Shown: one piece after another, positions 9,135-28,180 of the stretch
How positions within the stretch are numbered: position 1 is the first letter of the stretch
Layout: each line of letters starts with the position of its first letter
NCBI GenBank assembly: GCA_016783505.1
Contig: JADHWK010000028.1
Coordinates: forward strand, 1-28,940
DNA from: Candidatus Zhuqueibacterota bacterium
Lineage (GTDB): Bacteria; BS750m-G25
Reading direction: 5' to 3'
Length of the DNA stretch: 28,940 nucleotides
Notes under the pieces: model-generated
Told to the model about the DNA's origin: nothing
What the model saw: the letters and a program-made list of their open reading frames with translations, nothing else
Databases searched by the model: none
Position numbers and translations under genes: made by a program

Positions 9135-9392
9135 TTGTTAACTCAATCTTCTGACACCAATCCCAAAGCGGAGAAGGTCCAGATATCATTGATCCGTAGG
9201 GCAAGCGTAGCCAAAAGAATCTCACGAATGAGGTCCCTTTCTCAGACTACTATTCAGCTTTCACGGCGAGCGATCTTGCGAGCCAATCCAGGATTGAGCG
9301 ATCAAGAACTAAGCTTGATTTTCGCAGCGTATCATTATGGTGAAAACTTGTCGGATTCTCTACGCAAATACTTGAATCAGCGAAAACCATGA
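9135..9392 (+). CDS. Small helical protein paired with nucleotidyltransferase, function unknown
   Basis: This 85-residue, Ser/Arg-rich, helix-prone protein contains ASVAKRISRMRSLSQTTIQL near residue 24 and ANPGLSDQELSLIFAAYHYG near 50. Its stop overlaps the ATG of the nucleotidyltransferase gene by four bases (ATGA), showing tight coupling. The start is uncertain: a TTG at 9135 follows an in-frame stop directly, and an internal ATG at 9228 would remove the first third. I recall similar small proteins next to similar nucleotidyltransferases in other genomes but can name no domain. The arrangement recalls two-gene toxin-antitoxin modules; that role is inference. Confidence 0.6.
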   Translation: MLTQSSDTNPKAEKVQISLIRRASVAKRISRMRSLSQTTIQLSRRAILRANPGLSDQELSLIFAAYHYGENLSDSLRKYLNQRKP

Positions 9393-9973
9393 AAAATCCA
9401 GATATTTTAGCCGCATTAGAACCTGTGGTAAAAACCTTTGAGAAGCTAGGCGTGAAATATTATATTGGCGGCTCCGTAGCCAGTTCCGCCTATGGAATAG
9501 CTCGCGCAACTTTGGATGTTGATCTGGTCGCCGATTTAATACCCCAGCATGTTAGTTCCCTTGTAAAAGCTCTTAAATCAGAGTATTACATTGACAAAGA
9601 TATGATATTGGACGCAATTCATAGACGTTCTTCATTCAACCTGATTCACCTTGAAACTATGCTCAAGGTTGACGTTTTTATCGTTAAGGACGGGTCTTAT
9701 CATGTTGAAGCCTTTCGGAGGAGAAGAAAGGACACCCTGGATGAGGAGCGGGAAGACCTCAAATTTTACATTGCGTCCCCAGAAGATGTTATTCTCAACA
9801 AACTTGATTGGTTTCGCAAGGGAGGGGGCGTAGCAGATCGTCAATGGGGCGATGTTTTGGGGGTGTTGAAGGTTCAAGGAGATCAATTGGATATTGAATA
9901 CATTCGACGTTGGGCTTTAGAACTGGGCCTTGCCGATTTGTTGGATCAGGCGTTTCGGGAGGCGGGGATTTAA
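9389..9973 (+). CDS. Nucleotidyltransferase-fold protein (MNT/AbiEii-like)
   Basis: This 194-residue protein has the polymerase-beta nucleotidyltransferase pattern: YYIGGSVASS (GG at 27-28), the paired acidic residues in LDVDLV (D43, D45) and a third acid in KVDVFI (D95). SPEDVILNKLDWF (about 130-142) matches a segment typical of the AbiEii-like and related stand-alone transferases. All three catalytic acids are present, so it could move a nucleotide onto a tRNA, protein or small molecule; the substrate is unknown. It overlaps the small upstream gene by ATGA, and the LpoA-like gene starts 35 bases later. It could be a toxin-antitoxin or phage-defence component or a housekeeping modifier. Confidence 0.8.
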   Translation: MKNPDILAALEPVVKTFEKLGVKYYIGGSVASSAYGIARATLDVDLVADLIPQHVSSLVKALKSEYYIDKDMILDAIHRRSSFNLIHLETMLKVDVFIVKDGSYHVEAFRRRRKDTLDEEREDLKFYIASPEDVILNKLDWFRKGGGVADRQWGDVLGVLKVQGDQLDIEYIRRWALELGLADLLDQAFREAGI

Positions 9974-21500: not shown

Positions 21501-22237
21501 GCCTTAAGATCATGAGGAACGATCTTGAAGGGGCGGTAAGCTGGCTAAGAGACATCCCCAAGGATCATCCCCACCATTCGGTGCTGCCCGAACTTTACCT
21601 GACCCTGGGGACTCTTTACTATCGCCTTGGGGATTATCCGGGGGCGGTGAAGGCTTACAAATGGGTTGTGGAGAATGGGGGGACGGGGGAAATGGTGCCC
21701 ATCGCCATGAATAATCTGATCGGAACTTACAAAGAGATGAAATACTGGGAAGCCGCTCTGGACCTGACCGAGGATTATCTGGCCCGCTTTCCGGAGTCTG
21801 AGGACGCTTTTCAGAAAAAGATGGAAATTGGGAGTCTCTACCGAAATATGAAGGACTATGACTTTGCCATTTCTACCTACCGGGACCTTTTGCCCGATGC
21901 CGGCAGCGAGGACGAAGCGGCTCTCCAATTCTACATTGGGGAATGTTACTATCATAAAGGCCAGTATGAACAGGCGGTGCTGGAGTTTTTAAAGGTGAAA
22001 TACCTGGGGAAACGGACCAAGCTGGACTGGGCGGTAACCGCTCTGTATAATGCCGGGATGTCCTACGAACGTCTACACAAATACGATCAGGCGGAGCGCA
22101 TCTACAATCAGATCATTGACCAGTACGGGGCCGAATCCAACTACGGCCGCGGAGCCAGGAAACGCCTTCAGGAAATGAAATCGTTGAGGGAAAAAAGGGG
22201 TAAAGATAGTCGGTTATTCCGCAATAAGAATCAGTAG
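18542..22237 (+). CDS. Large exported TPR-repeat protein
   Basis: This 1231-residue protein begins with a signal peptide (MRNHLKLMVLLAAGLLVEPL..., likely cut near LCLAQ). The rest is almost wholly tetratricopeptide-like helix pairs from about residue 30 to 1215, for example FLLGETYFRLGSFEDARRAY, YFKDLKEYEKAIVQFKKSL, YYRLGDYPGAVKAYKWV and YNAGMSYERLHKYDQAERIY. Several units have the YbgF/BamD-like form with FP or YP at the turn (VNFPRS, EYPQS). Such proteins act as periplasmic scaffolds in envelope assembly; the specific partner is unknown. The last 20 residues are basic. A damaged copy of its 3' end lies downstream at 23027-23188, with a toxin-antitoxin module in between. Confidence 0.85.
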   Translation: MRNHLKLMVLLAAGLLVEPLLCLAQSQGEQDFLYAKRLYQDGMDDASVEQLSRFLVNFPRSVWVPEAQFLLGETYFRLGSFEDARRAYQRLAGEHPRSEFADRALYKVGLCFQRMDRLADGAFALMRLKDFYPNSGLTSGAFLLAATFFAQNDDLEEAERTLRTMLAEYPQSDQYFRARITLGQLLRRMGKPNQALRELGKVTDNCEDPTEVAWAHLLKAEIFAQEWEMDRARQELTKIRSDFPNTPYYHPATLRLGELALHQGAFSEAEKLFDQLTRETDQDSLRGRAHERKGDGFYLQGRYRPAGLEYQKVKEKSPRVHFKLGLVYDQLGQFDRAVMSWDQAARRENPWKEWALLRLTGGCSEKGDRERSNQYGKAYLSSFHNGESRDRVRYLMGENFRMADQWDAALNSFQLLLQETSLSSLADDAAFALAQVYEEMGDVDHALTFYLTVVDSFGAGEFRKASEDRVRYLKTFVVKSPDSGLKNLNLLITETVEGREGGKLLFNLGMLYFKDLKEYEKAIVQFKKSLTFSQDIETAVDAWYYLANSYRLLGLKKEYEGDRRRARKLKKKAVIYYQDLIKNYPRNRWSADAAAQLYGVQLELKGGERVSPSVIEGLVRPLRELDKRGRFSDLIWFRLGESYFYLGRRTRKESNRREHFQNAVTYFDSLIVQQPGSRWGGHAVYQRGLSHLELGDTAAAKSDFEGVVYHHPRSQWVLPSYLELIRLAQSNLDERISYYKIISEKLYYTPEAKEVPHKLAAAYAQAGRFQKALEIYLTLGAGEPDPIWPGEGYRFDYEIAGCYEGMGDSYQAEKYYKKVLSKGPGGPHYHSALYTLGDLYYAGYQLELAIRMFSELLGSVPEAYVGQKAREKLADIHFQLRDYSKARALYSELVQRVSNPEILRHLRTRLIICLYRTGELKEAKKRVKAFKKDYPDTKEEMAGFYLEKGIFLGENKEFDEAEKAFLTLVKHYPETDAVAKAKYQIGRLKIMRNDLEGAVSWLRDIPKDHPHHSVLPELYLTLGTLYYRLGDYPGAVKAYKWVVENGGTGEMVPIAMNNLIGTYKEMKYWEAALDLTEDYLARFPESEDAFQKKMEIGSLYRNMKDYDFAISTYRDLLPDAGSEDEAALQFYIGECYYHKGQYEQAVLEFLKVKYLGKRTKLDWAVTALYNAGMSYERLHKYDQAERIYNQIIDQYGAESNYGRGARKRLQEMKSLREKRGKDSRLFRNKNQ

Positions 22238-22275
22238 TTTTACGGATTGACATGGACAACTAAAAATTGCATTTA
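22113..22275 (+). repeat. Direct repeat R1: 3' end of the TPR gene and following bases
   Basis: This segment starts TCATTGACCAGTACGGGGCC and covers the last ~40 codons of the TPR gene plus ~40 bases after it. It matches R2 at 23027-23188 at roughly 85% by eye over the first 100 bases. The cassette between the two copies is the VapBC-type module with its promoter. Confidence 0.8.
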
Positions 22276-22299
22276 ACAAAATGCCTGTTTATTTTTCCC

Positions 22300-22372: not shown

Positions 22373-22609
22373 ATGAAAGAGAATTCAACAATTACAAAAG
22401 TCATTTTAGAGGAAGTTAAGGGGCTTTCCGAAGAGGAAGGAAAGAAGATTTTAGATTTTATTCAAAGGTTTAAGTACAGTACAAAATTGAAAAAATCACC
22501 CCTTAAACCAAATAGACAGGATCCATTGGAGAATGTGATTGGATGCTGTGATGGTCCCACAGACCTTTCAAAGAAACATGACCTCTATATTTATGGCAAC
22601 AGTTTATGA
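22373..22609 (+). CDS. Antitoxin of VapBC-type module
   Basis: This 78-residue protein contains ITKVILEEVKGLSEEEGKKI and LDFIQRFKYSTKLKK in its first half, resembling the short DUF2281-like antitoxins often found before PIN-domain toxins. The second half (NVIGCCDGPTDLSKKHDLYI) would be the toxin-binding tail. Its stop overlaps the toxin ATG by four bases (ATGA). The start is supported by AGGGG 6 bases upstream and a promoter at 22300. There is no obvious DNA-binding fold, so autoregulation is uncertain. Confidence 0.75.
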   Translation: MKENSTITKVILEEVKGLSEEEGKKILDFIQRFKYSTKLKKSPLKPNRQDPLENVIGCCDGPTDLSKKHDLYIYGNSL

Positions 22610-23025
22610 TATTCATTGATACTTGGGCATGGCTGGGGATGGCTGATAAAAATGACAGTTATCACCAAAAGGCCACTGCTTTATACCGTCGACTCAAAAG
22701 TGAAGCCGTTCAATATGTGACCTCAGATTATGTGTTGGATGAGGTGATTACCGCTTTATTTCGGGCAGTTCCGTTTGAACAGGCTGTTCGATTTATTGAG
22801 GCTATCGTTAAATTGAGAGACGGTAATAAGCTCATCATAGAGCCGGTAACCCCCATTATATTTGATGATGCTTGGACATTACGTAAGAAATATCAGGATA
22901 AACCGGTTATTTCCTCCACTGATTTTACCTCCTTTTCCATCATGCGCAAGCTTAATATTAGCCGGGTTTTTACGGGGGATGTTCATTTTGAGTCGGTGAA
23001 TCTGGGATTTGTATTGGAAAAATAA
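22606..23025 (+). CDS. PIN-domain ribonuclease toxin (VapC-type)
   Basis: This 139-residue protein is a complete PIN domain. The acidic metal-binding residues are all present: Asp5 in MIFIDTWAW, Glu46 in DYVLDEVITAL, Asp106 in SSTDFTSF and Asp125 in VFTGDVHF. PIN toxins cut specific RNAs, often tRNA or rRNA, with Mg2+ when released from the antitoxin. Both genes are intact. The stop codon is one base before the start of direct repeat R2, so the module ends precisely at the repeat boundary. It is coupled to its antitoxin by an ATGA overlap. Confidence 0.9.
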   Translation: MIFIDTWAWLGMADKNDSYHQKATALYRRLKSEAVQYVTSDYVLDEVITALFRAVPFEQAVRFIEAIVKLRDGNKLIIEPVTPIIFDDAWTLRKKYQDKPVISSTDFTSFSIMRKLNISRVFTGDVHFESVNLGFVLEK

Positions 23026-23026
23026 G

Positions 23027-23188
23027 TCATTGACCAATATGGGCCGAATCCAACTATGGCCGCGGGGTCAGGAAACGCCTTCAAGAAATGAAGTCTTCAA
23101 GGGAAAAAGGGGGTGAAGATAACCGGTGAGTCCGAAATAAAAATTACCAGTTTTGCGGATTGACATTAATGACGAAAAATTGTATTAA
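23027..23188 (+). pseudogene. Direct repeat R2: decayed copy of the TPR gene 3' end
   Basis: It starts TCATTGACCAATATGGGCCG and follows R1 closely through AGGAAACGCCTTCAAGAAAT and on to AAAAATTGTATTAA. Relative to R1 one G is missing (GGGCC against GGGGCC), which shifts the frame, and there is no start, so it cannot encode protein. R2 leads straight into a strong terminator, whereas the matching bases after R1 have lost that hairpin. R2 may therefore mark where the TPR gene and its terminator originally ended. Confidence 0.8.
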
Positions 23189-23228
23189 AAAAAGGCCTAT
23201 TCATTCATCTTGAGTAGGCCTTTTTTTT
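23187..23228. terminator. Bidirectional terminator T1 (left copy of a matched pair)
   Basis: AAAAAGGCCTA pairs perfectly with TAGGCCTTTTT around a 15-base loop, with A-run before and T-run after, so it could act on both strands. Bases 23194-23224 match 25849-25879 with a single mismatch in 31. Confidence 0.85.
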
Positions 23229-23252
23229 TGGAAACTGTTAACTTAACTGTCG

Positions 23253-23447
23253 CTAATTTGTATATATAGGAATCTCAACTCCAAGCTCCAGATGGTTTTT
23301 GATATACTCCAGGAACACCGCAAACCGAGCAAATCTAAATAGCCTCCAAAATAACCAGCCCATAATCTCCGCAGGTAAAACCACATAAAAACTAATTATA
23401 TACGGTAGACCCCCAAAAAAATTAATTTTTTTCTTGACAATATCCAA
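23253..23447 (-). CDS. Possible small membrane-associated protein
   Basis: This 64-codon minus-strand frame (TTG start at 23447; an internal ATG gives about 35 residues) encodes aromatic, amphipathic sequence: PYIISFYVVLPAEIMGWLFW followed by RLFRFARFAVFLEYIKNHLE. It converges on the bidirectional terminator T1. Its composition is less AT-rich than the flanking island. The start region overlaps the plus-strand promoter at 23434, and no Shine-Dalgarno is clear. It could be a real small protein, the tail of a deleted gene, or chance. Confidence 0.25.
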   Translation of the reverse strand: MDIVKKKINFFGGLPYIISFYVVLPAEIMGWLFWRLFRFARFAVFLEYIKNHLELGVEIPIYTN

Positions 23448-23462
23448 ATAAATTGTTATCTT
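23434..23462 (+). promoter_or_regulatory. Strong promoter of the AT-rich operon
   Basis: TTGACA, exactly 17 bases, TATCTT. Initiation near 23469 gives a leader of about 400 bases before the first gene at 23878. Confidence 0.65.
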
Positions 23463-23498
23463 ACATCGAAAGATATTACTTAAGATATGAATCTGACC

Positions 23499-23573
23499 CG
23501 ATTAGCCTCTCAAAAAATATCCCTGTTAAACAATGATGCTTGAAAAGCTATCATTGGTTTGCCTATCAAAATA
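23499..23573 (+). ncRNA. Conserved leader element, copy L2 (candidate structured RNA)
   Basis: The shared words ATTAGCCTCT, CCCTGTTAAAC, TGAT, GCTAT, TTGGTT and CAAAAT occur in the same order as in copy L1 at 25969-26046. Here AATGATGCTT (23532-23541) pairs with AAGC-T-ATCATT (23545-23555) around GAA, a 10-bp stem with one bulge. GATTAGC near the start can alternatively pair with GCTATC. It sits about 30 bases after the predicted transcription start. It matches no riboswitch consensus I know. Confidence 0.45.
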
Positions 23574-23877: not shown

Positions 23878-24432
23878 ATGTATATAATTGCAATTTTGGG
23901 TGCTACAACGCTCTTGTTTTCCATATGGATAATTCAGGGAGAACTAAGATTTAATAAAGTCATTAAAAAAGATGACGGAAATAATGTTAAAAGTTTTTTA
24001 GGAGAAAGTATAATTAAGTTCATTAATAAAGCACATACGGAATTATTAGCTATGTCAGGTCCGACATGCATAAATATTTTGGAGAGAAATGCTAATTTAG
24101 TAAAAAAAGCTCTCTTGTCGAATCCGGAATTGAAAATGAAGATAATTACGAGATCAGACTCAGATTTTGAAAATTCAAACGAACTCAGTGAAATTTTCAA
24201 GCTACCCGAAATAGAAAAAAGGGTCGAAATTTTTAGATTGAAGGAAGGGATAATACCGACTCAACACTTTGTATTGATTGACAAAAAGCACCTTCTGGTT
24301 TCCAATGTTGATAAAAAAGGGGAACCGTTGATAGCATTTTCTATGTTTAGAAATAAGGCGAAAGCTAAACAGTTTCGGGATCAATTTTCCCGATTACATA
24401 AGACACTTGATTTAGTTAAACTCGAGTTCTGA
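23878..24432 (+). CDS. Membrane-anchored protein with degenerate phospholipase-D-like domain
   Basis: This 184-residue protein has one N-terminal membrane segment (about residues 2-20), then a soluble alpha/beta domain. FINKAHTELLAMSGPT (about 48-63), a strand at LKMKIITRSDSD (85-96) and TQHFVLIDKKHLLVSN (128-143) follow the order of a single PLD half-domain, with H130 and D135 where an HKD motif would be. The spacing is H-x4-D and the Lys is missing, so catalysis by the normal mechanism is doubtful; it may sense or bind a phosphodiester ligand. It is the first gene of an AT-rich operon with very strong AAGGAGG. The PLD relation is my reading by eye and needs structure prediction. Confidence 0.6.
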   Translation: MYIIAILGATTLLFSIWIIQGELRFNKVIKKDDGNNVKSFLGESIIKFINKAHTELLAMSGPTCINILERNANLVKKALLSNPELKMKIITRSDSDFENSNELSEIFKLPEIEKRVEIFRLKEGIIPTQHFVLIDKKHLLVSNVDKKGEPLIAFSMFRNKAKAKQFRDQFSRLHKTLDLVKLEF

Positions 24433-24458
24433 ATAAATATCCAAAACATGAGGGATAA

Positions 24459-24815
24459 ATGGAAGAAGTGATTGAGAAAATTGGTTTTCAATTAAGTAAT
24501 TTAATTAATTGGGTTTTGGCCGCAATAGGTGCAGTTGTAATAAACCTGAAAATCCTTACATCAAGAAGAGATGTATATTTGGAGCGGCACTTAATATTGC
24601 TATTCTGGATTGGGACATTTTTTGTCATTACCTTATTTATTTTAGGATTATATTTAATCTTCTCACACAATATAAATAATATTATGGTTTTAATTGTATG
24701 TATTCCTCTCTTTTTATTCATAATAACCTGGTTTGCTTATAAACATTATCCTATAAAGCAAGGAGAAAAAGAAGTTTCACCTAAAGATCCAGAAGAAGCC
24801 CTCCAAACAAATTAA
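24459..24815 (+). CDS. Small multi-pass membrane protein, unknown function
   Basis: This 118-residue protein has hydrophobic segments at about residues 15-32, 45-68 and 76-93, then a charged tail (KQGEKEVSPKDPEEALQTN). It begins MEEVIEKIGFQLSNLINWVL. No family is recognised. It starts 26 bases after the PLD-like gene, on the same strand and with the same AT-rich codon use, so the two are probably co-transcribed and co-acquired. It could hold its neighbours in a membrane complex; that is inference. Confidence 0.65.
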   Translation: MEEVIEKIGFQLSNLINWVLAAIGAVVINLKILTSRRDVYLERHLILLFWIGTFFVITLFILGLYLIFSHNINNIMVLIVCIPLFLFIITWFAYKHYPIKQGEKEVSPKDPEEALQTN

Positions 24816-24912
24816 TTCCTAATGTGAAAATAGTTCTTTTAATTAATCTGTATTATATTGCAACCAAAAGTATCATTGTTTGGGTTGAAATTTAAGATTG
24901 TCGAGAGACGAA

Positions 24913-25602
24913 ATGTATTTTACTGAATTTACAATACGTATATTATTTTTATTTTTACCGGGAATAATTACATATTTAATAATTGAATCTTTAACAGTTA
25001 TTAAAGAACGGAAGGTTTTTTACTTCATTATTTATTCATTTGTTTTAGGATTTATTGCATATTTTACTTTCTATCTCGTTCTCCTTTTATCTACAGTATT
25101 TTATGACTTCTGTATTGAAAGCAAGTTTAAATTTTTTAAAGCTCTTTTAGATCCAAAGGTAAGTTTAGATATTACTGAAATATTTTTTGTTAGTATAATT
25201 GCAATAATTAATGGCTTTATTTTGTCATATATGATAAATAGAAAATCATTACATCGAACCGCACAAAGTCTTCGTATAACAAAAAAATTTGCAGAAATTG
25301 ACGTTTGGGATTTATTGTTTAATTCATCTGACGATGAGATGAAATGGGTTTTAATTAGAGATATTAAAAATGATTTAATTTATGAAGGGTGGATTGAAGC
25401 TTTTTCAGATACTGTGAAAGAAAACGAGTTATTTATTAGAGACGTAATCGTATATCAAAATTCCACTGATCAAGAATTGTATAAAGTCCCAGGCCTATAT
25501 TTAGCACGTAATAGAGATGAAATAACAATTGAATTTCCAGCATTACCGTTTAGCAATGGTTCAATGAGTTCTCATACTAATCAAAAAGAGGGAGTATCCT
25601 AA
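24913..25602 (+). CDS. Membrane protein with soluble C-terminal domain, DUF6338-like
   Basis: The ATG at 24913 is preferred over a TTG at 24898, giving 229 residues. Three membrane segments (about 7-25, 35-60 and 90-108) precede a soluble domain with KKFAEIDVWDLLFNSSDDEM, then a beta-rich stretch DLIYEGWIEAFSDTVKENEL, FIRDVIVYQNSTDQELYKVP and YLARNRDEITIEFP. A membrane half plus a small barrel-like domain with a W-x-E-A-F-S segment recalls DUF6338-type proteins of unknown function; I am not certain of the family. The following 35-codon gene starts one base after the stop, so the two are translationally linked. Codons are strongly AT-rich. Confidence 0.65.
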   Translation: MYFTEFTIRILFLFLPGIITYLIIESLTVIKERKVFYFIIYSFVLGFIAYFTFYLVLLLSTVFYDFCIESKFKFFKALLDPKVSLDITEIFFVSIIAIINGFILSYMINRKSLHRTAQSLRITKKFAEIDVWDLLFNSSDDEMKWVLIRDIKNDLIYEGWIEAFSDTVKENELFIRDVIVYQNSTDQELYKVPGLYLARNRDEITIEFPALPFSNGSMSSHTNQKEGVS

Positions 25603-25603
25603 A

Positions 25604-25711
25604 ATGATTAAAAAAAGACTTACCGAAGGTAAAATTGTAAAGGGAGGTAAAAATAAACCGCCTTCAACACCAAGACCTTCGCATCCCAAAAAACAAGAAC
25701 GCAAAGAATAG
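25604..25711 (+). CDS. 35-residue basic Pro/Lys-rich peptide, last gene of the operon
   Basis: The sequence begins MIKKRLTEGKIVKGGKNKPP and ends KKQERKE; about a third of the residues are Lys or Arg, with five prolines in the centre and no hydrophobic core. It is short enough to be missed by gene finders. Evidence that it is real: GGGAG ends 9 bases before the ATG, it begins one base after the preceding stop, and it ends cleanly before the operon terminator. It is likely disordered and could bind nucleic acid, acidic lipid or a domain of the preceding membrane protein. Confidence 0.55.
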   Translation: MIKKRLTEGKIVKGGKNKPPSTPRPSHPKKQERKE

Positions 25712-25843: not shown

Positions 25844-25885
25844 AAAAAGGCCTATCCATTCATCTTGAGTAGGCCTTTTGTTTTT
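25844..25885. terminator. Terminator T2 (right copy of the matched pair)
   Basis: AAAAAGGCCTA pairs with TAGGCCTTTTG around the same 15-base loop as T1, with one base difference in the 31-base core (25849-25879). It ends the AT-rich operon. Confidence 0.85.
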
Positions 25886-25926: not shown

Positions 25927-25968
25927 AAAGACAAGACAAACCAATTCCTATAGATCTGATTCTGGACT

Positions 25969-26046
25969 GGATAGCCTCTTAAAATTACCCCTGTTAAACT
26001 ACTGATCCTGGTAGGGCTATATTTGGTTAGACCCGCCCTACAAAAT
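25969..26046 (+). ncRNA. Conserved leader element, copy L1 (candidate structured RNA)
   Basis: It carries GATAGCCTCT, CCCTGTTAAAC, CTGAT, GGCTAT, TTTGGTT and CAAAAT in the same order as L2. GTAGGGC (26011-26017) pairs perfectly with GCCCTAC (26035-26041), while ATAGCC (25971-25976) can instead pair with GGCTAT (26015-26020), so two exclusive folds are possible. Its 3' end lies about 25 bases before the start codon and close to the AGGAGG site (26061-26066), a position suited to translational control. Confidence 0.5.
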
Positions 26047-26071: not shown

Positions 26072-28180
26072 ATGTTATTGAAAAATGGTAAAATCTTAGG
26101 GACAGTAATGATTGCAATCTTATTTTGCAGTCTTGCTTTTGGTCAGAATAACAGACCAGCAAATGTGCCCCCGGAACAGCTCCCATCAAGGGATATTCGC
26201 CACCATATAAATTTCACACCGCAGGAGACTTTTCAAGCCTTAGACGATAGTAATACTACACTAATAGGACGGTGGGCAAATGGTCCCTGTTATGCCGTGG
26301 ATGTATCGGGTAACATTGCCTATTTTGGTAATGGGGGCTATCTTGAAGTTGTGGATATTTCTAATCCGGCAAATCCCGTTGAATTAGGAAATATAGTAAC
26401 TCCGTCATTAGTTAGCGGTGTTGCCGTCAGCGACAGTTATGCCTATGTGGCCGATGGGGAGGATGGTTTACGCATCATTGACGTCACCGCCCCTTCCTCC
26501 CCGCAAGAAGTGGGCTTCTTTGACACGGGTGACTATGCTAAAGGCGTTGCCTTCAGCGGCAGTTACGCCTATGTGGCCGATTGGGATGATGGTTTACGCA
26601 TCATTGACGTCTCCACCCCTTCCTCTCCGCAAGAAGTGGGCTTCTTTGATACGGGTGGCGATGCTTTTGGCGTTGCCGTCAGCGGCAGTTACGCCTATGT
26701 GGCCGATGGGGGGGATGGTTTACGCATCATTGACGTCTCCACCCCTTCCTCTCCGCAAGAAGTGGGCTTCTTTGATACGGGTAGCTATGCTTATGGTGTT
26801 GCCGTCAGCGGCAGTTACGCCTATGTGGCCGATGGGTCTGCTGGTTTACGCATCATTGACGTCTCCGCCACTTCCTCTCCGCAAGAAGTGGGCTTCTTTG
26901 ATACGGGTAGCATAGCTAAAGGTGTTGCCGTCAGCGGCAGTTACGCCTATGTGGCTGATGTGTTTGCTGGTTTACGCATCATTGATGTCTCCACCCCGTC
27001 CTCGCCGCAAGAGGTGGGCTTCTTTGATACGGGTGGCAGTCCTAATGACGTTGCCGTCAGCGGCAGTTACGCCTATGTGGCTGATGTGTTTGCTGGTTTA
27101 CGCATCATTGATGTCTCCACCCCGTCCTCGCCGCAAGAGGTGGGCTTCTTTGATACGGGTGGCAGTGCTAATGACGTTGCCATCAGCGGCAGTTACACCT
27201 ATGTGGCCGATGGGTGGGATGGTTTACGCATCATTGACGTCACCATCCCGTCCTCGCCGCAAGAAGTGGGCTTTTTTGATACGGGGTATGACGATGCTGT
27301 AGGCGTTGCGGTCAGCGACAGTTACGCCTATGTGGCCTATGGGTATGATGGTTTACGCATCATTGACGTCTCCAACCCTTCCGCTCCGGGAGAAGTGGTC
27401 TTCTTTGATACGGGTGGCTGGGCTTATGGCGTTGCGGTGAGTGTCAGTTACGCCTATGTGGCCGATGGGTCTGCTGGTTTACGCATCATCGACGTCTCCA
27501 CCCCTTCCTCGCCGCAGGAAGTGGGTTTCTTTGATACGGGTGGCTCTGCTCGCGGTGTTGCCGTCAGCGGCAGTTACGCCTATGTGGCTGATGGGGAGGA
27601 TGGTTTACGCATCATTGACGTCTCCACCCCTTCCTCTCCGCAAGAGGTGGGTTTCTTTGATACGGGTGGCTATGCTTTGGGCGTTGCCGTCAGCGGCAGT
27701 TACGCCTATGTGGCCGATGGGTTGGATGGCTTACGCATCATTGACGTCTCCACCTCTTCCTCGCCGCAGGAAGTGGGTTTCTTTGATACGGGTGGCTATG
27801 CTAAAGGCGTTGCCGTCAGCGGCAGTTACGCCTATGTGGCCGATGGGGAGGATGGTATGTATATTATACAGAACGATCTACTATTAGTTATTAATGAAGA
27901 GTCCAGCTATTCCCCAGAGAGTTTCTTCTTAGCTCAAAATTATCCCAATCCATTCAATCCAATCACCACCATCAAATACGGCCTTCCCAAGGAATCAAAG
28001 GTAACCCTGAAGGTATTTGACATCCTCGGGCGTGAAGTGGCCACATTGGTTGATGAACATCAAACTGCCGGTTACCACCAGATAAATTGGGATGCATCGG
28101 GTCATTCATCTGGAATTTATTTTTATCAAATTAAAGCGGGGGAGTTTCAGAAGATCCGGAAGATGATTCTTTTGAAATAA
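26072..28180 (+). CDS. T9SS-secreted LVIVD-repeat beta-propeller protein
   Basis: This 702-residue protein has a signal peptide (MLLKNGKILGTVMIAILFCS..., cut near FGQ), a divergent first repeat at about 82-122, then eleven highly similar units (residues 123-585) and a partial last one. Each unit is 42 residues (one has 43) with the LVIVD-type core GLRIIDVSTPSSPQEVGFFD followed by GVAVSGSYAYVAD. From about 620 a T9SS type-A sorting domain follows (NYPNPFNPITTIKYGLP, GREVATL, DASGHSSGIYFYQI, ending IRKMILLK), so it should be exported and anchored at or released from the cell surface. Surface adhesion or binding is likely; no catalytic residue set is seen. AGGAGG lies 5 bases before the ATG. The leader contains element L1. 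Confidence 0.92.
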   Translation: MLLKNGKILGTVMIAILFCSLAFGQNNRPANVPPEQLPSRDIRHHINFTPQETFQALDDSNTTLIGRWANGPCYAVDVSGNIAYFGNGGYLEVVDISNPANPVELGNIVTPSLVSGVAVSDSYAYVADGEDGLRIIDVTAPSSPQEVGFFDTGDYAKGVAFSGSYAYVADWDDGLRIIDVSTPSSPQEVGFFDTGGDAFGVAVSGSYAYVADGGDGLRIIDVSTPSSPQEVGFFDTGSYAYGVAVSGSYAYVADGSAGLRIIDVSATSSPQEVGFFDTGSIAKGVAVSGSYAYVADVFAGLRIIDVSTPSSPQEVGFFDTGGSPNDVAVSGSYAYVADVFAGLRIIDVSTPSSPQEVGFFDTGGSANDVAISGSYTYVADGWDGLRIIDVTIPSSPQEVGFFDTGYDDAVGVAVSDSYAYVAYGYDGLRIIDVSNPSAPGEVVFFDTGGWAYGVAVSVSYAYVADGSAGLRIIDVSTPSSPQEVGFFDTGGSARGVAVSGSYAYVADGEDGLRIIDVSTPSSPQEVGFFDTGGYALGVAVSGSYAYVADGLDGLRIIDVSTSSSPQEVGFFDTGGYAKGVAVSGSYAYVADGEDGMYIIQNDLLLVINEESSYSPESFFLAQNYPNPFNPITTIKYGLPKESKVTLKVFDILGREVATLVDEHQTAGYHQINWDASGHSSGIYFYQIKAGEFQKIRKMILLK
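26438..27826 (+). repeat. Eleven tandem 126-bp coding repeats
   Basis: Units start at 26438, 26564, 26690, 26816, 26942, 27068, 27194 (129 bp), 27323, 27449, 27575 and 27701, with a partial one from 27827. Most of each unit is nearly identical in DNA. Variation is concentrated in two short windows, unit residues 7-9 (GED, WDD, GGD, GSA, VFA, GWD, GYD, GLD) and 31-36. Units at 26942 and 27068 differ at only a few bases. Confidence 0.9.

What the first reader, a model, noticed from the sequence alone, without database searches (positions are those of the whole stretch)
23878..25711. AT-rich four-gene membrane operon of unknown function, possible new envelope-stress or defence system
Seen: four same-strand, closely spaced frames (degenerate PLD-like membrane protein, small multi-pass protein, DUF6338-like membrane protein, 35-residue basic peptide), much richer in A+T than the genes to the left, with their own strong promoter and terminator. 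Three of the four have membrane segments. Known: PLD-fold, small-membrane and cationic-peptide combinations occur in phage-defence and envelope systems. Inference: a horizontally acquired membrane complex in which the PLD-like domain is a sensor or nuclease and the peptide a partner or effector. No transposase or integrase is seen.
Basis: partly seen in the sequence, partly recalled or inferred. Interest (0 to 1): 0.75.

Follow-up and report, generated by a model that had tools for sequence, protein, structure and literature searches.

The report
Membrane protein with conserved proline-rich micropeptide
Two of the four genes form a widespread, mobile pair (a small membrane protein of the unstudied family DUF6338 and a tiny proline-rich protein encoded right behind it) that repeatedly sits inside or beside bacterial anti-phage operons, although a published study had taken such tiny proteins for species-specific new genes.

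Summary
The four same-strand AT-rich frames are real, between a promoter-like site and a hairpin terminator, but they are not one conserved system. Gene 1 (PLD label unsupported) and gene 2 have no detectable relatives in the collections tested and are absent from every other locus collected. Gene 3 is a genuine DUF6338 protein, predicted as three membrane helices plus a cytosolic Sm/LSm-like barrel. Gene 4 is its dedicated partner: 35 of 51 DUF6338 genes (at least six phyla, plasmids, a phage, an integron-type array) are followed at once by a tiny proline-rich ORF, against 42 of 369 control genes in the same loci (p = 8e-18). These peptide genes are under purifying selection in their own frame only, often tandem, once fused to DUF6338. 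In several mobile elements the pair lies directly beside CBASS, E2/E1-JAB, TIR-caspase, CHAT, IetAS or restriction genes; elsewhere it stands alone. The one paper found that names DUF6338 detected three such peptides and called them possible de novo genes. Most likely reading: an accessory or effector module of anti-phage defence with a micropeptide regulator. The pairing is shown, the defence link suggestive, the mechanism inferred.

The parts
24913..25602 (+). DUF6338 membrane protein, 229 aa (alternative TTG start at 24898)
   Evidence: Pfam PF19865 27.0 bits, cut-off 26.5; start by alignment with L005/L007; 3 TM plus C-terminal five-strand barrel in the model, Sm/LSm-like
25604..25711 (+). 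35-aa basic proline-rich micropeptide MIKKRLTEGKIVKGGKNKPPSTPRPSHPKKQERKE, partner of DUF6338
   Evidence: begins 1 nt after the DUF6338 stop, GAGGGAG just upstream; equivalent ORF behind most DUF6338 genes; such ORFs under purifying selection
23878..24432 (+). 184-aa protein, one N-terminal membrane segment, no recognised family; co-oriented, probably co-transcribed, not part of the conserved pair
   Evidence: AlphaFold model without value, mean pLDDT 36
24459..24815 (+). 118-aa protein with three membrane segments, no recognised family; not part of the conserved pair
23434..23462 (+). promoter-like site TTGACA-17-TATCTT with extended -10 TG
   Evidence: 10 of 12; one site among a chance-level number
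25845..25879 (+). intrinsic terminator hairpin that closes the unit; copy of a dispersed genomic repeat
23189..23230 (+). same terminator hairpin, closing the upstream PIN-domain unit

Best explanation
Genes 3 and 4 are one copy of a widespread two-gene module. It consists of a DUF6338 inner-membrane protein (three membrane helices, N-terminus out, an Sm/LSm-like barrel in the cytosol) and a disordered, usually basic, proline-rich micropeptide made from the next gene. The module moves on mobile elements and joins anti-phage operons of different kinds, or stands alone, and most likely serves there as an accessory or effector unit. Proposed mechanism: the micropeptide binds the cytosolic barrel of DUF6338 and holds it silent or controls its assembly. 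When a partner system senses infection (in several loci the neighbour is a caspase-like, CHAT or subtilase protease), the peptide is lost or changed and the membrane protein damages the membrane of the infected cell. Shown here: the pairing, the coding nature of the peptides, the mobility, the defence neighbours in part of the loci. Predicted: the topology and barrel. Inferred: peptide-barrel binding, the direction of control and the membrane effect. Genes 1 and 2 are probably co-transcribed passengers or local partners.
For: Pairing; strict test 35/51 against 42/369 control genes, Fisher 8e-18; about eight more loci have a peptide just outside the thresholds, a fused one or a broken one. Coding: pN/pS 0.14-0.39 in frame against above 1 in the other two frames for six pairs. 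Expression of three such peptides in Pseudomonas stutzeri: PMC10433244. Fusion in L111/L028. Mobility and defence context: L055 Tn7-like cargo plus TIR and caspase, L056 Prok-E2_A and ThiF-JAB, L063 SMODS cyclase plus 2TM effector, L065 and L123 CHAT, L067 AAA plus IetS, L125 HsdR/HsdS, L092 type IIG enzyme, L010 integron-type array, L068 phage. Patchy: 7 of 16 genomes of a small phylum. Fold; topology.
Against: Many copies stand alone between ordinary genes: own genome behind gyrB, and most copies in the G113 genus. In the window itself only a PIN-type toxin-antitoxin-like pair lies near. The neighbour statistic is small: 6 of 21 immediate upstream genes look like defence genes (one of them, in L060, only a weak methylase match; the TIR gene of L070 by annotation) against 0 of 20 distant genes; counting generic matches it is 7 of 21 against 3 of 20. 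No PADLOC model covers the pair. The model rests on three sequences, pTM 0.38, membrane part below 70; Z 8.6 is only slightly above what unmatched models often reach. Some DUF6338-like genes lack a peptide (G528, G596, G113b, G381c, G660, G751).
Confidence: 0.5

Rival explanations
1. An addiction-type toxin-antitoxin pair: DUF6338 is a membrane toxin and the peptide its antidote (or the reverse); defence neighbours merely reflect shared mobile elements.
For: Two adjacent small genes, frequent overlap, plasmid, integron-type and prophage settings next to known toxin-antitoxin pairs, patchy presence.
Against: No DNA-binding domain in the peptide, 1-3 tandem peptide genes per locus, operon-like spacing with CBASS, E1-JAB, IetS and CHAT genes; peptides well expressed in P. 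stutzeri without reported effect.
Confidence: 0.2
2. A housekeeping or membrane-homeostasis module unrelated to defence; the Sm-like barrel and the proline-rich peptide form a general membrane scaffold.
For: Stand-alone copies between ordinary genes in own genome (behind gyrB) and in the G113 genus; DnaK - DUF6338-like - ClpB order in two Planctomycetota.
Against: Rare and patchy: over the Pfam cut-off in 6 of 290 genomes across the domain, 10 of 392 in one phylum, 0 of 82 in another; plasmid, phage and integron-type carriage; the chaperone-linked copies lack the peptide.
Confidence: 0.17
3. One reading: all four genes form one membrane complex with gene 1 as sensor or nuclease.
For: Same strand, 26 and 97 nt gaps, no terminator between them, shared flanking terminators.
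Against: Genes 1-2 occur in no other DUF6338 locus, in no plasmid, and gene 1 in none of 290 genomes; no PLD family match.
Confidence: 0.08
4. The peptide is a proline-rich antimicrobial or ribosome-binding peptide, with DUF6338 as exporter, immunity or sequestration protein.
For: PRP and PP-K motifs in some peptides; an antimicrobial role is raised as a possibility in PMC10433244.
Against: No leader or export signal; motif content varies greatly (GYQP repeats in some, PRP in others, acidic in Streptomyces); DUF6338 has no transporter signature over cut-off.
Confidence: 0.05

Closest known systems
DUF6338 (Pfam PF19865)
   Same: Gene 3 passes the family cut-off and has the same length and membrane layout as other members
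   Different: Pfam holds only the membrane protein; no described function, and the partner peptide has no family in Pfam, NCBIfam, PHROGs or PADLOC
P. stutzeri operon of Pstu14405_12030 with three small proline-rich proteins (PMC10433244)
   Same: DUF6338 gene followed by three proline-rich proteins under 50 aa, detected by mass spectrometry
   Different: The authors judged the peptides not conserved beyond the species and possibly de novo; here the same arrangement is found in at least six phyla
CBASS, TIR-caspase, IetAS, CHAT and E2/E1-JAB defence operons
   Same: DUF6338 plus peptide sit directly inside or beside such operons in several mobile elements
   Different: The window has none of these genes beside the pair, and PADLOC has no model for the pair
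Sm/LSm proteins
   Same: Predicted N-terminal helix plus five-strand barrel, residues 125-212, best Z 8.6 over 73 residues, rmsd 2.5
   Different: Membrane-anchored, no LSM family hit at E up to 10, no RNA partner known

Membership tests
DUF6338 (PF19865) | Profile match over the curated cut-off | tested here: met
   27.0 bits, cut-off 26.5; second copy in own genome 52.7 bits
DUF6338 plus micropeptide module (defined here) | Tiny proline-rich ORF directly behind the DUF6338 gene | tested here: met
   25604-25711, 1 nt after the stop; enrichment
Phospholipase D superfamily (gene 1) | HxKx4D motif or profile match | tested here: not met
   no Pfam, NCBIfam or PDB match; TQHFVLIDKKHLLVSN lacks the lysine
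Known anti-phage system (PADLOC-DB 2.0.0) | Model match of at least one of the four proteins | tested here: not met
   no match at E up to 1 for any of the four
Sm/LSm fold (C-terminal domain of gene 3) | Helix plus five-strand barrel fold | tested here: inconclusive
   predicted; Z 8.6, listed rows are Sm/LSm-type chains, but shallow alignment and only modest Z
Sm/LSm fold (C-terminal domain of gene 3) | Ring assembly and RNA or peptide binding | not testable with these tools
   complex prediction not available
MscS-type channel | MS_channel profile match | tested here: not met
   no such hit for ten DUF6338 proteins at E up to 10; the resemblance in layout (three helices plus Sm-like domain) is from memory only
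Toxin-antitoxin system | Toxicity of one gene relieved by the other | not testable with these tools
   needs an expression test

The most novel reading that the evidence does not exclude
DUF6338 plus its proline-rich micropeptide is a so far undescribed plug-in membrane effector of bacterial immunity, recruited by many unrelated anti-phage systems (cyclic-nucleotide, ubiquitin-like, TIR-caspase, subtilase and restriction systems), whose activity is set by binding of the micropeptide to a membrane-anchored Sm-like barrel: a bacterial barrel-domain and proline-peptide switch.
Probability: 0.25. Interest if true: 0.85.

Novelty: new variant of a known kind. Interest (0 to 1): 0.66.

Why it matters
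Tiny proline-rich genes are missed by annotation and by standard proteomics, and the one published sighting called them species-specific, possibly de novo genes. Here they are a conserved partner of a widespread membrane family. If the defence role holds, one small two-gene unit would be a shared output module of several unrelated immune systems, directly testable by cloning the pair with and without the peptide next to CBASS, TIR-caspase or IetAS operons.

Tried and rejected
PLD nuclease for gene 1: rejected for lack of any match. AlphaFold of gene 1 alone: worthless, pLDDT 36. Viral collection: no relative with the window protein, only a 30-residue match with an Acinetobacter query; one Klebsiella phage record among annotated phages. 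E. coli genomes: no DNA match with the Proteus gene. PDB by sequence: nothing. Rfam in the region and tRNAs in the window: nothing. The hairpin repeat was first suspected to be an integron-like cassette mark; its position behind genes of all kinds, nearly always in gene orientation, makes it a dispersed terminator. A large PADLOC tally of near against far genes was prepared and dropped because family tallies cannot be turned into counts of genes; a small one was run instead. Literature: only one paper names DUF6338, none names PF19865, and two broader searches gave nothing relevant; the library holds no preprints and few subscription journals.

Full report
OBSERVATION. The window is contig C26 of a 2.5-Mb assembly in 89 contigs, 60% complete and the only genome of its phylum in the collection. 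The four frames exist as described in an AT-rich stretch that reaches from about 22.24 to 26.0 kb. One good promoter-like site lies at 23434, and the unit ends at a hairpin at 25845-25879. Gene 3 very likely starts at ATG 24913. Hydropathy gives one, three and three membrane segments for genes 1-3.

GENES 1 AND 2. No library or collection tested recognises them: Pfam, PADLOC and NCBIfam, PHROGs, PDB sequences for gene 1, plasmids. Gene 1 matches none of 290 genomes sampled across the domain other than its own. Neither occurs in any of the other DUF6338 loci fetched here. The PLD reading rests on a resemblance only; the catalytic HxK is absent. They are probably co-transcribed with genes 3-4, but nothing shows that they act together.

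GENES 3 AND 4 ARE A PAIR. Gene 3 is DUF6338. A second, distant DUF6338 gene in the same genome lies behind gyrB and is again followed by a proline-rich 38-aa ORF. The nearest outside relatives, in a KSB1 and a Planctomycetota assembly, carry such an ORF overlapping the DUF6338 stop. The same holds for Methylobacterium, Agrobacterium, Acidiphilium, Vibrio, Proteus, Acinetobacter, Fluviibacter, Sphingomonas, Mesorhizobium, Mycobacterium, Curtobacterium, Streptomyces, Paludisphaera, a Klebsiella phage and several unnamed phyla. Tandem peptides occur, for example three in Acinetobacter soli. In one locus the peptide is fused to the DUF6338 C-terminus.

TEST. With fixed criteria (30-110 aa, at least 11% proline, low hydrophobicity, start within -60 to +220 nt of the stop), 35 of 51 DUF6338 genes pass, against 42 of 369 other genes in the same loci, Fisher 8e-18. 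The control positives look like chance frames in GC-rich DNA. About eight further DUF6338 loci have a peptide just outside the thresholds, fused or broken. Several loci come from one genus and are not independent, so the p-value is optimistic. True exceptions exist, including a DnaK - DUF6338-like - ClpB arrangement in two Planctomycetota. Between related pairs the peptide genes show pN/pS of 0.14-0.39 in their own frame and above 1 in the other two frames, so they are translated and kept. Across 40 peptides the median length is 53, proline 17%, net charge +5, and no stretch is hydrophobic enough for a membrane segment. Recurrent elements are GY-x-P or KGG, and PP-K near the end.

PUBLISHED TRACE. 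PMC10433244 detected three proline-rich proteins under 50 aa in an operon with a DUF6338 gene in Pseudomonas stutzeri by direct sequencing, and stated that they are not conserved beyond the species and may be de novo genes. The present comparison shows that the arrangement is conserved; a sequence search can miss it because the peptides are short and diverge fast. I did not have the P. stutzeri peptide sequences.

CONTEXT. DUF6338 genes are rare and patchy: over the cut-off in 6 of 290 genomes, 10 of 392 in one phylum, 0 of 82 in another, 7 of 16 in a small phylum. They occur on plasmids, in a Tn7-like element, an array with DUF3265 genes and toxin-antitoxin pairs that looks like a Vibrio integron (integron reading from general knowledge), a prophage-type plasmid (broken copy) and a phage. 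Direct neighbours recognised as defence genes: SMODS cyclase plus 2TM effector, Prok-E2_A plus ThiF-JAB, TIR plus caspase twice, CHAT twice, AAA plus IetS, HsdR/HsdS, a type IIG enzyme; identities by PADLOC and Pfam, except the Curtobacterium TIR-caspase pair, taken from its annotation, and the L123 CHAT gene, read by similarity to L065. In annotated mobile elements 6 of 21 immediate upstream genes look like defence genes (one weak) against 0 of 20 distant genes; counting generic PADLOC matches as well it is 7 of 21 against 3 of 20. This is suggestive, not proof. Many other copies stand alone, as in this window, where only a PIN-type toxin-antitoxin-like pair lies nearby.

STRUCTURE. AlphaFold on three sequences gives three helices and a C-terminal five-strand barrel with pLDDT mostly 80-89. 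The PDB matches are Sm/LSm-type chains (VIA-align Z 8.6, 73 residues, rmsd 2.5). Charge distribution puts the N-terminus outside and the barrel in the cytosol, where the peptide would also be. A Pro-Gly in the first membrane helix and a Trp before the barrel are invariant in 13 diverse members. The membrane part of the model is not reliable.

MECHANISM. The simplest reading is a membrane effector or accessory unit controlled by its micropeptide, added to various sensors. Caspase-type, CHAT or subtilase proteases beside the pair in five loci (L055, L070, L065, L123, L067) suggest, but do not show, activation by proteolysis. Rivals are an addiction pair, a general membrane module, a true four-gene complex, and an antimicrobial peptide with a partner.

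VERDICT. The interesting part is genes 3+4. The pairing is firm within the limits of the sample; a defence function about 0.55-0.6; the peptide-barrel switch about 0.25.

Noticed in passing
window 23193-23221 and 25848-25876; about 30 places in G000: A dispersed intrinsic-terminator repeat (AGGCCTATTCATTCATCTTGAGTAGGCCTTTTGTTTTTT) with conserved stem and loop, behind genes of many kinds, nearly always in gene orientation. Why one terminator sequence was copied so often is unexplained.
   Followed up: partly
window 22200-22280 and 23113-23193: 81-nt direct repeat (77% identical) that includes the 3' end of the TPR gene and flanks the PIN-domain toxin-antitoxin-like pair at 22373-23025: looks like an old insertion or duplication.
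   Followed up: no
window 23480-23560 and 25952-26028: Leader-like sequence upstream of the four-gene unit is 74% identical to the one upstream of the LVIVD gene at 26072.
   Followed up: no
window 26072-28180: Secreted protein with 13 LVIVD repeats and a sorting tail; its near-identical repeats create long open alternate frames.
   Followed up: no
L099:6190-11634, L100:5950-11372: Two Planctomycetota carry a DUF6338-like gene between dnaK and clpB, without a proline-rich peptide gene: possibly a chromosomal, chaperone-linked branch of the family.
   Followed up: no
L110 and L108: Orthologous DUF6338 genes of the G113 genus without a peptide gene, in a fixed chromosomal place.
   Followed up: no
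window 9389-9973: Nucleotidyltransferase-like protein, weak DUF6036 match below cut-off.
   Followed up: no
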